DNA from: Porphyrobacter sp. SLTP
Lineage (GTDB): Bacteria; Pseudomonadota; Alphaproteobacteria; Sphingomonadales; Sphingomonadaceae
Direction: 5' to 3'
Assembly: GCF_009905735.1 (NCBI RefSeq)
Contig: NZ_JAAALE010000002.1
Coordinates: forward strand, 124,001 to 188,000
Length of the DNA stretch: 64,000 bases
The notes beneath the pieces are model-generated. The model was not told the origin of the DNA, did not search any database, and saw only the letters and a list, made by a program, of their open reading frames with translations. This document shows, piece after piece, positions 4,027 to 12,077 of the stretch. The position numbers and the translations under genes were made by a program. The stretch's first letter is position 1. Each line of letters begins with the position of its first letter.

Positions 4027-7000
4027 ATGAACCTCTCCCCGCTTTCCCGCGCCGGCCTGCGCGCTGGCACCTGCGCTCTTGCCCTTGCCTTGACCCTGCC
4101 GCTGGCAGCCAAGGAAACGGCGACCGCGCAGCCGCAGCCCGAACCGGCCGCCCAGCCCGAACAGGAAGACCTCGACAGCGCCAGCGACACGACCACGGAT
4201 GGTGGCGAGATCGTTGTGCGTTCGGGGCGACTGCGGGGGCAGCTGTTCGTCGATCAGGCCCCGCTGCTTGAGCTGGATGAAACCGCGATTGCTTCTGAGG
4301 GCGTCACCTCCATCACCGACCTGATCGCCCAGATCAGCGCGCGCACCGGTTCGGCGCGCGGGCGTGGCGGCGGCGGGCAGCCGGTGATTCTCGTCAACGG
4401 CATCCGGATCGGAAGCTTCCGTGAATTTGCCAACTATCCTCCAGAAGCCCTTGCCCGGGTTGAGGTCTTTCCCGAAGAAGTCGCCCAGCGCTTCGGCTTT
4501 CCGCCTGATCGCCGGGTGATCAATCTCATCCTCAAGGACAATTATTCCAACCGTCAGGTCGATCTGGAATATGAGATGCCGTCGCGCGGCGGCTATGCCC
4601 GCAACGAACAGCAGCTCGGCATCCTCAAGATCGCCAATGGCGGCCGGATCAACGCCAATATCGAGGTTCAGGACACTTCGATTCTGACCGAAGCCGAGCG
4701 CAACATCGAGCAGACCGATGGCTCGCAGTCCCTGGTCGCGGGCGATCCCGATCAGGCCGAATTCCGCAGCCTGCTGGCTGACACCTTCGGGATCGACGCC
4801 AATGTCTCGTGGGCCAAGGCGATTGTCGAAAGCGGGACGTCGCTCAGCGCCAACCTCAATTACGCTCGCAACGAAAGCCGCAGCCTCGACGGGCTCAACA
4901 CCGTCACGCTGACCTCGCCGACGGGCACCAGCGCGCTGCGCACGTTCGGCGCGGACACTCCGCTCGCCCGGCGCTCCGCGAGCGACACGGTCTCGGCTGC
5001 CGGATCGATCAACCAGCCGATCAATGCCTTCCGGCTCACCACCACCTTCGACGGCTCCTTCAGCGAGACCGAGACCGAGATCGACCGGCGGCTGGGGACC
5101 GCGCAGCTCCAGGCCTTCCGCGATGCCGCGGCGGCAGGCACGCTGGCGATCACCGGTCCGCTGCCGACCAGCGCCGACAACGGCTTCGATGTCGCGCTGC
5201 GCCGGACGATTACCACGGAGACCCTGGCGACGCTCGAGGGCCCGCTCGCCGAGCTGCCTGCGGGCGAGGTGCTAGCGACCTTTGACCTCGGTCTCGACTG
5301 GCGCAGGATCGAAAGCAGCGACACGCGCTCGCTGACGGGCGCCGAGCTGACCCGCCGCCGCCTGTCGACCGGTGCCAATCTGGTGGTGCCGCTGACCAGT
5401 GTGCGCGAGGAATTCCTCGACGGATTGGGCGACTTCACCCTGAACCTTCAGGCCGGGCTCGAGGACCTCAGCGATTTTGGCCTTCTCGGTGACTGGAACG
5501 CCGGGATCACATGGAAGCCCACTGACGGTCTTGACCTGTCGGCGACCTATATCTTGCGCGAGGTTGCGCCCTCGCTCTCGGCGCTGGGCGATCCGCAGGT
5601 CACCAATTTCAACGTCCCCGTGTTCGATTTCGTGCGCGGCGAGACGGTGTTGGCCGAGGTGTTGACCGGGGGCAATCCGACCCTGCCGCCTGAGACCCAG
5701 CGCGACTGGAAGTTCTCGGCCAATTGGGAACTGCCGTTCTGGGAGAATTCGCGGCTGACGGTCGATTACATCATGAACCGCTCGGATGACGTGGTGAGCA
5801 GCTTCCCGCAGATCACTGCCGAGACCGAGGCCGCCTTCCCCGGCCGGGTGACGCGCGATGCGAGCGGCCGCGTGCTGCGGGTCGACCGTCGCTCGGTGAG
5901 CTTTGCCGAGACGCGGGCGGACCGGATCCAGTTCACCTTCTCGACAAATGGCAGCATCGGCGCCCCGGCTGAAGGCGCAGGCGGTCGTGGTGGTGGCGGC
6001 GGTGGTCGCTTTGGCGGTGGCGGCGGTGCGCCTCCTGCCGCTGCGCCAGCTGCGCCAACCACAGGTCCGGCCCCGCAAGCAGGCGCGGGCGGCCCTCCGG
6101 CGGGCGGCTTCGCTGCGCCGACAGCCGAACAGCGTGAGCAGTTCATGGCCTTCCGTGCGCGCCTGTGCGCCGACGATGGTCAGGCCTTCCTCGAAAAGCT
6201 CGTGGCGGCGATTGATAGCGGTGCGGATATCTCGGCGGAGTTCCCCGGCATTGACCCGGCGCGGCTTGCCCCGATGCTGGCGCGCATCCGCGGTGCGGAC
6301 GGTAAAGTCGATCCGGCGCGGCTGGCGCAGTTCCGCACGCGGATCTGTAGCATCGATCCTGCCATGATGGGCGGCGGTGCACCGGGCGCTCCGGCAGGCA
6401 CGGTTTCAGCGGCCATCCCGCCGCAGCTCGCCGCTTTCCGTGAGCGCGCTTGCGGCCCGGACGGTACGACTGCGATTGCCGAACTGGTCGCCAAGATCGA
6501 ACGCGGCGAAGATGTTTCGGCCGAGCTGCCGGGCGTCGATCCCGCCTTCATCAAGATGGCACTCGACCGGTCGCGCCTCCCCGATGGTACCATCCCGCCT
6601 GAGGCGCTGGCGCAGTTCCAGCAGCGCTTCTGCGCGGCGGCTCCCCCCGCTCAGACTCCGGGCGGCGCTCCCGCGTCGGCTGGCGGTGCGCCTGCGGGTG
6701 GCCCGGCCTTCAATCCGCTGGGAGGGCGCAACTTCCAGGGCTGGCGGTACTTCTTCAACCTGACCCACACGATCGAGCTCGCCAATGAGATCCTGATCGC
6801 CCCCGGCCTGCAACCGCTCGACCAGCTTGACGGTCAGGCGACAGGCGCCTTCGGCCAGCCCCGCCATTCGAGCCGCCTCGAAGCGGGCCTGTTCGGCAAG
6901 GGCCTCGGCTTCCGCCTGTCGGGCATCTACACCGGGACAACCCGCCTCGACGGGGCCGTCGGCACCAGCGATCTGTTTTTCGACGACATTGCCACCTTCA

Positions 7001-7209
7001 ACCTGCGCATCTTTGCCAATCTCGGAGAAGTGACGGGCAAGAACGAAGGCCTGCTCAAGGACTTCCGCGTGAGCTTGGTCGCCGACAACGTGTTCGACGC
7101 GCAGCGCAAGGTGCGCGATTCGGCGGGTGAGACGCCGATCAACTACCAGCCCTTCGTGATCGACCCGCTGGGGCTGTATCTCGGGATCGATCTGCGAAAG
7201 TTGTTCTAG
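4027..7209 (+). CDS. TonB-dependent receptor with a duplicated Cys-pair insert
   Basis: The 1060-residue protein is an outer-membrane TonB-dependent receptor. It has a signal peptide (about 1-30) and a TonB-box-like EIVVRSG at 61-67. The plug region (about 75-175) includes VILVNGIRIGSFREFANYPPEALARVEVFPEE. A beta-barrel runs to a C-terminal Phe (DLRKLF). Its ligand is unknown. Odd feature: after a Gly-rich stretch (about 650-670) and an Ala/Pro linker there are two related units. Unit 1 runs from C714 to C774 and unit 2 from C809 to C869, both starting FRxRxC and ending (F)xxRxC. The barrel resumes near 903 (FQGWRYFFNL). The insert of about 250 residues probably forms an extracellular loop. 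AAAGGGA precedes the ATG. No clustered transporter or enzyme hints at the substrate. Confidence 0.9.
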   Translation: MNLSPLSRAGLRAGTCALALALTLPLAAKETATAQPQPEPAAQPEQEDLDSASDTTTDGGEIVVRSGRLRGQLFVDQAPLLELDETAIASEGVTSITDLIAQISARTGSARGRGGGGQPVILVNGIRIGSFREFANYPPEALARVEVFPEEVAQRFGFPPDRRVINLILKDNYSNRQVDLEYEMPSRGGYARNEQQLGILKIANGGRINANIEVQDTSILTEAERNIEQTDGSQSLVAGDPDQAEFRSLLADTFGIDANVSWAKAIVESGTSLSANLNYARNESRSLDGLNTVTLTSPTGTSALRTFGADTPLARRSASDTVSAAGSINQPINAFRLTTTFDGSFSETETEIDRRLGTAQLQAFRDAAAAGTLAITGPLPTSADNGFDVALRRTITTETLATLEGPLAELPAGEVLATFDLGLDWRRIESSDTRSLTGAELTRRRLSTGANLVVPLTSVREEFLDGLGDFTLNLQAGLEDLSDFGLLGDWNAGITWKPTDGLDLSATYILREVAPSLSALGDPQVTNFNVPVFDFVRGETVLAEVLTGGNPTLPPETQRDWKFSANWELPFWENSRLTVDYIMNRSDDVVSSFPQITAETEAAFPGRVTRDASGRVLRVDRRSVSFAETRADRIQFTFSTNGSIGAPAEGAGGRGGGGGGRFGGGGGAPPAAAPAAPTTGPAPQAGAGGPPAGGFAAPTAEQREQFMAFRARLCADDGQAFLEKLVAAIDSGADISAEFPGIDPARLAPMLARIRGADGKVDPARLAQFRTRICSIDPAMMGGGAPGAPAGTVSAAIPPQLAAFRERACGPDGTTAIAELVAKIERGEDVSAELPGVDPAFIKMALDRSRLPDGTIPPEALAQFQQRFCAAAPPAQTPGGAPASAGGAPAGGPAFNPLGGRNFQGWRYFFNLTHTIELANEILIAPGLQPLDQLDGQATGAFGQPRHSSRLEAGLFGKGLGFRLSGIYTGTTRLDGAVGTSDLFFDDIATFNLRIFANLGEVTGKNEGLLKDFRVSLVADNVFDAQRKVRDSAGETPINYQPFVIDPLGLYLGIDLRKLF

Positions 7210-11171: not shown

Positions 11172-12077
11172 TTACTGGCCGTCGAGCGCCTTGCTCACCA
11201 GCACGTTGACCGACACGCGGCGGTTCTGCGCGCGGCCGGCGGCGGTGGTGTTGTCGGCAGCTGGATCAGACGTGGCCATGCCCGTCGGGGTCAGCATCCG
11301 GTAGGGCTTCCACTTGCAGACCTGCTGAAGGTGGTTGACCACCGCCGCTGCGCGCTTTTCCGACAGCGTCTGGTTCACTTCCTGCGACCCGGTCGAGTCG
11401 GTGTAGCCCAGCACCAGCATCAGCGAGTTTTCGTTGGCGCCTGCGGTTTGCGCTGCGGCGCAGAGTTCCGACTTGGCACCGGGCGTCAGCACGGACTTGC
11501 CGGTGTCGAAATAGACGTTGGTGGTGCTCTTGAGGTTGTACTTGTCGATATCGCCAAGGCGGCCGCGCAGGGCTTCGGTGGCGGCGGCGTTCTGCTTGAT
11601 CGCAGCGCCCTGTTCGCCGAACTGCTGTTGGGTGCCGCCGCGGATCATCGCTGCGATCTGGCGATCATCGCTGGTGAAGCGGACTTCGCTGGCCACCAGA
11701 CCTTCGCCGTACTGGCCGGTCTTCACGATCACCGGCAGGCCGTTGATCAGCGCGCTCTGATCGAACGCCTTGTTGCCGATGCCGAGGAACCCGCCGCGGG
11801 TGCGGATTTCGGTTTCGGGGTGGAGCGTGATCATGGTGGTCGTGCCATCGTCAGCCGTCACTTGCAGACGCGAACCCTTGCGCGCCGAGATGATGCCGGT
11901 GACCTTGGGCCCCTCGGTCATTTCGGCAAGCGGGGGCAGCGAGCCATAGACGGTGGTCAACACCTCGCCCTGGTCTTCGACGGGTACCTGCGTCTGGGCG
12001 GCAAGGCCGGTGGCAGATACAGCGCCCAAAAGGGCGATCAGCGCGAGGTTACGCGCCTTATGCTTAGTGGTGGTCAC
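11172..12077 (-). CDS. OmpA-family peptidoglycan-associated protein
   Basis: The 301-residue protein has a signal peptide (about 1-27, ending TGLAAQ). A beta-rich middle region contains SRLQVTADDGTTTMITLHPETEIRTRGG, resembling a DUF5666-like single-domain fold. A C-terminal OmpA domain follows: VYFDTGKSVLTPGAKSELCAAA, LVLGYTDSTGSQEVNQTLSEKRAAAVVNHL and AGRAQNRRVSVNVL. The D and R that bind diaminopimelate (TDSTG and NRRV) are present, so it should bind peptidoglycan in the periplasm. The start is GTG at 12077, with AGGAG 10 nt upstream. It lacks an eight-strand barrel, so it is not OmpA itself. Confidence 0.85.
   Translation of the reverse strand: MTTTKHKARNLALIALLGAVSATGLAAQTQVPVEDQGEVLTTVYGSLPPLAEMTEGPKVTGIISARKGSRLQVTADDGTTTMITLHPETEIRTRGGFLGIGNKAFDQSALINGLPVIVKTGQYGEGLVASEVRFTSDDRQIAAMIRGGTQQQFGEQGAAIKQNAAATEALRGRLGDIDKYNLKSTTNVYFDTGKSVLTPGAKSELCAAAQTAGANENSLMLVLGYTDSTGSQEVNQTLSEKRAAAVVNHLQQVCKWKPYRMLTPTGMATSDPAADNTTAAGRAQNRRVSVNVLVSKALDGQ

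What the first reader, a model, noticed from the sequence alone, without database searches (positions are those of the whole stretch)
6166..6633. Duplicated Cys-pair unit inserted in an outer-membrane receptor loop
In the TonB-dependent receptor, two units of 61 residues from Cys to Cys align without gaps. C714 to C774 and C809 to C869 lie 95 residues apart. Shared anchors are FRxRxC, a GADIS/GEDVS-type centre, (E)FPG(I)DP / (E)LPG(V)DP and a final DP/PP-xx-LAQF-xxR-xC. They sit after a Gly-rich stretch and an Ala/Pro linker, between barrel strands, in an insert of about 250 residues. A repeated, disulfide-capable domain on the cell surface suggests ligand capture or partner docking by the loop, which I do not know as a described arrangement.
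Basis: partly seen in the sequence, partly recalled or inferred. Interest (0 to 1): 0.6.

Follow-up and report, generated by a model that had tools for sequence, protein, structure and literature searches.

The report
Twin helical beads under nutrient receptor
A bacterial outer-membrane nutrient receptor carries two copies of a small helical domain, each apparently pinned by its own disulfide bond, on flexible arms that most likely hang on the inner side of the membrane next to the motor docking site rather than on the cell surface, and the domain matches no family searched here.

Summary
The duplication is real. In a 1060-residue TonB-dependent receptor of an Erythrobacter relative, two ungapped 61-residue Cys-to-Cys units (C714-C774, C809-C869) share 29/61 residues. 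Unit 1 alone is predicted as a compact four-helix domain (pLDDT 87.6, pTM 0.74); the Gly/Pro/Ala-rich linkers get very low confidence. Of 139 distinct inserts, 55 have 0, 26 have 2 and 58 have 4 cysteines, never an odd number; the 84 with units show no other cysteine in the mature sequence held. An intra-unit disulfide is therefore likely. The unit matches no Pfam, NCBIfam or solved-structure family above chance level, and its hits lie in the window's bacterial family except one weak partial match.

The surface placement is probably wrong. Profile alignment to seven E. coli TonB-dependent transporters runs to the C-terminal residue (E 2e-15) and puts the insert at the beta16-beta17 hairpin, periplasmic turn T8. 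A published FhuA-TonB interface figure labels T8 and T9. Best reading: a flexible periplasmic arm carrying one or two disulfide-pinned beads that dock a periplasmic partner, most plausibly the Ton machinery. Duplication, Cys pairing and constraint are shown; fold and side of the membrane are well supported but computed; disulfide chemistry and partner are inferred.

The parts
4027..7209 (+). TonB-dependent receptor, 1060 aa, between maf/infA (-) and an HI0933-like gene (-)
   Evidence: ORF; PF00593 27.8 bits over cut-off 27, plug PF07715 18.2 under cut-off 23.9; conserved neighbourhood
4204..4218 (+). TonB-box-like stretch GEIVV (residues 60-64) before the plug
   Evidence: family stretch (x)IVV aligns with BtuB (T)LVV in the profile comparisons; no functional test
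5905..5958 (+). barrel strand 16 (residues 627-644), the last strand before the insert
   Evidence: strand in model (model 568-585); aligned with the BtuB stretch before TGPLT; the number 16 rests on recalled BtuB topology
5959..6132 (+). N-terminal Gly/Ala/Pro linker (residues 645-702)
   Evidence: 36% G, 28% A, 17% P; model 587-644 pLDDT under 50; gap fraction 0.25 between relatives
6136..6354 (+). unit 1, four-helix domain (residues 704-776) with C714 (6166-6168) and C774 (6346-6348)
   Evidence: model of residues 700-779 pLDDT 87.6, pTM 0.74, helices 2-14, 19-32, 45-53, 64-76; dN/dS 0.11, no gaps
6355..6420 (+). middle linker (residues 777-798)
   Evidence: model 717-738 pLDDT under 50; least conserved part, identity 0.52
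6421..6642 (+). unit 2, four-helix domain (residues 799-872) with C809 (6451-6453) and C869 (6631-6633)
   Evidence: four helices in the full-length model (not modelled alone); dN/dS 0.16, no gaps
6643..6738 (+). C-terminal Gly/Pro/Ala linker (residues 873-904)
   Evidence: 25% G, 22% P, 22% A; model 813-844 pLDDT under 50
6742..6798 (+). barrel strand 17 (residues 906-924), the first strand after the insert
   Evidence: model 847-865; aligned with the BtuB stretch after TGPLT
7171..7206 (+). C-terminal strand 22 ending in Phe (residues 1049-1060), which anchors the topology count
   Evidence: K and F of R-K-x-F invariant in 23 of 23 rows of A4; aligned with the BtuB C-terminus; not called as a strand in the weak full-length model

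Best explanation
The insert is a periplasmic appendage of the receptor. The beta16-beta17 turn (T8), only a few residues in BtuB, is expanded to 260 residues. It holds three flexible Gly/Pro/Ala linkers and two copies of an about 70-residue four-helix domain, each pinned by one disulfide from just after helix 1 to the end of helix 4. Most likely the beads hang beside the TonB-binding opening of the barrel and act as tethered docking modules that hold a periplasmic partner close to the receptor, with TonB/ExbD the first candidate. Shown: duplication, strict Cys pairing, purifying selection. Predicted with good support: folded units, periplasmic side. Inferred only: disulfide chemistry, docking role and partner identity.
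For: Position: hhalign of the family (23 rows, insert columns left out) against a seven-member E. coli TBDT profile runs to the last residue in both modes (E 2.3e-15 local, 1.4e-23 global) and puts the insert at BtuB ..NFDTGPLTHTVSY... Barrel match to solved FhuA/BtuB: Z about 16, rmsd 6-9 A, from a weak model. Fold: unit 1 alone pLDDT 87.6, pTM 0.74, four helices; linkers pLDDT under 50. Disulfide: 0, 2 or 4 Cys in 55, 26 and 58 of 139 distinct inserts, never odd; no other Cys in the mature part held of the 84 with units (63 with at least 90% of that part held, 18 with 50-90%, 3 with under 50%). Constraint: dN/dS 0.11 and 0.16 in the units against 0.24 in the first barrel part, no gaps in 276 pairs. 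One or two matches in each of 89 family genomes with a match. Partner: the legend of a FhuA-TonB interface figure names FhuA periplasmic turns T8 and T9 (PMC11658791, passages seen).
Against: The full-length model is weak (mean pLDDT 55, pTM 0.37) and calls only five strands after the insert; the sixth (C-terminal) strand rests on sequence and alignment, and five would flip the side. Alignments to BtuB alone did not reach the C-terminus or placed the region differently in global mode. The units are not the most constrained part: plug dN/dS 0.09, second barrel part 0.155, C-terminal linker 0.18. 55 of 139 distinct relatives have no unit, so it is not needed for receptor function as such; presence/absence needs at least 9 changes on the tree. 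A general Ton-docking aid would be expected on other receptors too, yet I saw the unit on this one only.
Confidence: 0.4

Rival explanations
1. Periplasmic tether to the cell wall or to a substrate-binding protein: the beads hold the receptor to peptidoglycan or hand imported cargo to a soluble periplasmic protein, without touching the Ton motor.
For: Same periplasmic placement; long flexible linkers plus small folded beads fit a reach-and-hold device.
Against: None of the weak Pfam matches of 59 units is a peptidoglycan-binding domain. No transporter or binding-protein gene among the neighbours tested: SAICAR synthase, Maf, HI0933-like, UvrC, DUF6445, OmpA and DUF885; the OmpA-family gene at 11172-12077 is 4 kb away.
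Confidence: 0.25
2. Surface domain: the insert is an extracellular loop that captures a ligand or partner.
For: Long inserts in these receptors are usually extracellular loops (recalled); the full-length model calls only five strands after the insert.
Against: Alignment to seven E. coli TBDTs places it in the beta16-17 turn. The loops on either side of it (15-16 and 17-18) are long while the 14-15 and 18-19 turns are tight in the family alignment. The conserved C-terminal R-K-x-F strand makes six strands after the insert.
Confidence: 0.1
3. Assembly or stability element: the disulfide beads help the barrel fold or mature (by analogy with disulfide-dependent outer-membrane proteins, recalled) and have no docking role.
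For: Pure Cys pairing and repeated gain/loss.
Against: 55 of 139 distinct relatives have no unit; the units join the barrel only through long low-confidence linkers.
Confidence: 0.13
4. Near-neutral passenger: a small foldable domain that duplicates and is lost easily in a permissive low-complexity turn.
For: Unit number changes at least 16 times on the receptor tree; Cys-less Gly/Pro-rich T8 inserts are tolerated.
Against: Purifying selection on the units (dN/dS 0.11 and 0.16, no gaps in 276 pairs) while the linkers vary in length and sequence.
Confidence: 0.12

Closest known systems
BtuB and other 22-strand TonB-dependent transporters (E. coli)
   Same: Plug plus barrel architecture; the family aligns end to end with the profile of BtuB, FepA, CirA, FhuA, FecA, PqqU and FhuE; the weak model matches FhuA/BtuB structures.
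   Different: BtuB has a short turn at beta16-17 (recalled topology; sequence TGPL); here that turn is 260 residues and carries two folded domains. The plug scores under the Pfam cut-off.
FecA-type signalling transporters (N-terminal periplasmic STN domain, recalled)
   Same: A TBDT with an added periplasmic domain.
   Different: The added domain here is not N-terminal and not STN (no hit); it sits inside the barrel sequence; no FecI/FecR among the neighbours tested.
EF-hand proteins (lanmodulin, calmodulin)
   Same: Helix-loop-helix with a DGx(I/V)D turn; weak profile hits (E 0.68-1.1) and weak fold matches (calmodulin and caltractin, Z 2.1-2.5).
   Different: The metal-ligand positions 1 and 12 are mostly Leu and Arg/Lys; 0 of 59 units fit.

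Membership tests
TonB-dependent transporter | TBDT beta-barrel domain (PF00593) | tested here: met
   27.8 bits, cut-off 27, residues 270-599; end-to-end alignment to E. coli TBDT profile, E 2.3e-15
TonB-dependent transporter | N-terminal plug domain (PF07715) | tested here: inconclusive
   18.2 bits, under cut-off 23.9, but profile alignment covers the BtuB plug from its TonB box on
TonB-dependent transporter | TonB box at the N-terminus | tested here: met
   IVV of the family aligned with BtuB LVV; by alignment only, not by function
TonB-dependent transporter | 22-strand barrel with C-terminal aromatic strand ending in the periplasm | tested here: inconclusive
   C-terminal F invariant in 23 of 23 rows and aligned with BtuB F614; full-length model pTM 0.37 does not resolve all strands
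FecA-like signalling TBDT | STN domain before the plug | tested here: not met
   no STN among Pfam matches up to E 10
EF-hand domain | acidic/polar residues at loop positions 1, 3, 5 and Glu/Asp at 12 | tested here: not met
   0 of 59 units
any named Pfam domain (for the unit) | match over the curated cut-off | tested here: inconclusive
   59 units scanned; best E 0.0025 in 2 of 59 (YppG), 18 scattered families with E up to 1; cut-offs are printed only for the window unit (13.9 bits, cut-off 27)

The most novel reading that the evidence does not exclude
A previously undescribed disulfide-pinned four-helix domain has been gained, duplicated and lost repeatedly inside a periplasmic turn of a TonB-dependent transporter, giving the receptor its own flexible docking arms beside the TonB entry site, a kind of appendage for which my searches found no report.
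Probability: 0.3. Interest if true: 0.75.

Novelty: new variant of a known kind. Interest (0 to 1): 0.5.

Why it matters
How TonB finds the right receptor across a crowded periplasm is, to my knowledge, an open question. A receptor that carries one or two folded, disulfide-pinned beads on flexible arms in the turn beside the TonB site would be a natural handle on it. Relatives with two, one or no unit in the same gene give a ready comparison set. If the partner is not TonB, the same constructs would reveal another periplasmic partner of a nutrient receptor. The domain would also be a new family to name.

Tried and rejected
Surface loop: considered first, set aside after the strand count. Alignments to BtuB as a single sequence were not enough: one stopped at BtuB 455, global runs placed the GGNP region at BtuB strands 18-19 (E 0.063), and a local run gave the T8 placement at only 10.7% probability, E 0.0029. 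They are superseded by the seven-sequence profile, where both modes agree; the disagreement is told because it counts against. EF-hand/lanmodulin: rejected. Named family for the unit: none found (PHROGs best E 0.057). Known fold: Foldseek best E 0.78, gasdermin-B; second look best Z 3.1, too weak to use and no evidence that the fold is new. A second gene with the unit in this genome: none seen, but the profile search scored 21 of 43 first-look candidates; the sequence search scored 25 of 25 and found this gene only. One match outside the family (G651, 32 residues, E 8.1e-4) was not followed and is taken as chance. Literature: no paper describing such an insert appeared in the searches (listings with titles and starts of abstracts seen; passages of PMC11658791 and PMC7142613 seen); most subscription papers are not held.

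Rows dropped: L093 (receptor cut by a contig end) from the Cys counts. For the receptor tree L001-L031, every second locus of L059-L083 and rows with under 600 residues were left out (126 rows kept). For the unit tree 88 units were kept. The relatives are not a random sample: they come from four searches, the first three with the insert as query, plus 60 places that I chose from the list.

Full report
Observation. The window holds a receptor gene at 4027-7209 (+), 1060 aa. Its cysteines are residues 16, 714, 774, 809 and 869. C714-C774 and C809-C869 are 61 residues each, lie 95 apart, align without gaps and share 29 of 61 residues; the ungapped score of the two 90-residue stretches is 177 against at most 50 in 500 shuffles. 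The nearest named locus is Erythrobacter ramosus, 99% over the insert.

The receptor. Pfam gives a TonB-dependent barrel just over its cut-off and a plug under it. The insert has no Pfam or NCBIfam match even at E 10. The gene lies between maf/infA and an HI0933-like gene followed by uvrC (infA is named from its sequence, recalled). Of 34 named relatives, infA and maf are found in 30 loci and the HI0933-like gene in 32; in five of these the HI0933-like gene lies 2.5-3 kb further off.

The units. Aligned as 59 diverse copies, the units keep four invariant positions (R7, C11, G56, C71 of the first row) and nearly invariant P37, R50 and R69. The Cys-to-Cys distance is 61 in all 92 distinct-insert units counted in the genus and 38 to 64 overall. 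The unit-1 model is confident (mean pLDDT 87.6, pTM 0.74) with four helices. In the full-length model (mean pLDDT 55, pTM 0.37) both units show four helices and the three linkers have pLDDT under 50, as do parts of plug and barrel. No solved fold stands out. No sequence match to solved structures is significant: best E 0.35, then EF-hand proteins at 0.68-1.1. The EF-hand ligand pattern is met by 0 of 59 units.

Cysteine pairing. Across 140 distinct insert regions 58 had four Cys, 26 two and 56 none; one of the 56 is truncated by a contig end, leaving 55 of 139. None had an odd number. The 84 with units show no Cys elsewhere in the mature part that is held: at least 90% of it in 63, 50-90% in 18, under 50% in 3. 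One of the 55 unit-less members has a single Cys elsewhere. Units come and go whole, which is what a bond inside each unit predicts.

Selection. Among 24 two-unit members (276 pairs), unit identity is 0.84 and 0.83, with no gaps and dN/dS 0.11 and 0.16. The plug shows 0.92 and 0.09, the first barrel part 0.76 and 0.24, the second barrel part 0.85 and 0.155. The linkers have identity 0.52-0.72, gap fractions 0.15-0.27 and dN/dS 0.18-0.41. The units are thus as constrained as the barrel, less than the plug, while the linkers drift. Linker dS is above 1, so those ratios are rough.

Distribution. In the same genus 87 of 100 genomes match the two-unit query. In the order 52 of 246 match it, while 155 of 246 match the receptor without insert. 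All 91 loci brought in by the insert query hold the receptor reading frame with units in it. With the unit profile 89 of 298 family genomes match (28 of 96 genera), each with one or two matches; I did not check gene by gene that these 89 are all in the receptor, and at most 20 first-look candidates per genome were scored. In the class 3 of 289 match, all in this family. In the phylum 8 of 398 match: seven in this family and one 32-residue match at E 8.1e-4 elsewhere. In its own genome the profile finds only these two units (21 of 43 candidates scored).

History. On a receptor tree of 126 thinned rows the number of units needs at least 16 changes and presence/absence at least 9 (FastTree, several long branches, some genomes present twice). 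With the root drawn at the midpoint, 34 unit-less rows form one side. Across the 55 unit-less members the Gly/Pro/Ala-rich T8 insert is 15-134 residues, so a long T8 is not tied to the units. A poorly resolved unit tree places nearly all second units of the genus together and the first units of most short-unit genera in another group, which suggests at least two duplications. Members with one unit next to two-unit relatives (L083-L087) keep the unit-1 type (56-68 of 73 identical, against 30-34 to unit 2), i.e. probably lost unit 2.

Which side of the membrane. A profile of 23 family members with the insert columns left out aligns with a seven-member E. coli TBDT profile from the TonB box to the C-terminal Phe, in local and global mode (E 2.3e-15 and 1.4e-23). 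The family's GGNP-x-L motif falls on BtuB GNPNLDPE; strands 14, 15 and 16 follow, and the insert falls at BtuB NFDTGPLTHTVSY, before six further strands. That the BtuB barrel has 22 strands with the C-terminus in the periplasm, and the strand numbers themselves, are recalled. In the family alignment the neighbouring 15-16 and 17-18 loops are long and the 14-15 and 18-19 turns tight. Against: the weak full-length model calls five strands after the insert, and single-sequence comparisons with BtuB were partial or misplaced. I put the periplasmic side at about 0.9.

How it may work. [quoted passage not shown] An arm in T8 would start near where TonB works. Two small beads on roughly 58-, 22- and 32-residue linkers could hold TonB, ExbD or another periplasmic protein near the plug. 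The own genome has five matches to the TonB C-domain family. This step is inference; nothing here tests binding. In the passages found of a review of TBDTs in sphingomonads (PMC7142613) no such insert is mentioned.

Verdict. It is a new variant of a known kind of transporter, with a domain that I could not name. Function is open; docking of a periplasmic partner is the leading guess.

Noticed in passing
L149, L154-L163, L171 (unit-less relatives), start of T8: Several unit-less clades carry a short Cys-free helical-looking stretch right after strand 16 (roughly PPS....(F/L)R.(R/Q)F), reminiscent of helix 1 of the unit.
   Followed up: no
4204-4536: The plug lacks the usual RGP-x-SALYGS-x-AIGGVINI motif (recalled; RGPRSAVYGSDAIGGVVNI in BtuB) and has FPEEVAQRFGFPPDRRVINLILK instead; Pfam plug score is under cut-off.
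   Followed up: partly
L072, L082, L089-L091: In these relatives about 2.5-3 kb of extra DNA lies between the receptor gene and the HI0933-like gene.
   Followed up: no
L170 (G241:C45:347000-351000): One genome has a second, unit-less copy of the receptor family besides its unit-bearing copy (L056).
   Followed up: no
G000 (own genome): Five matches to the TonB C-terminal domain family, so several TonB-like partners are possible.
   Followed up: no
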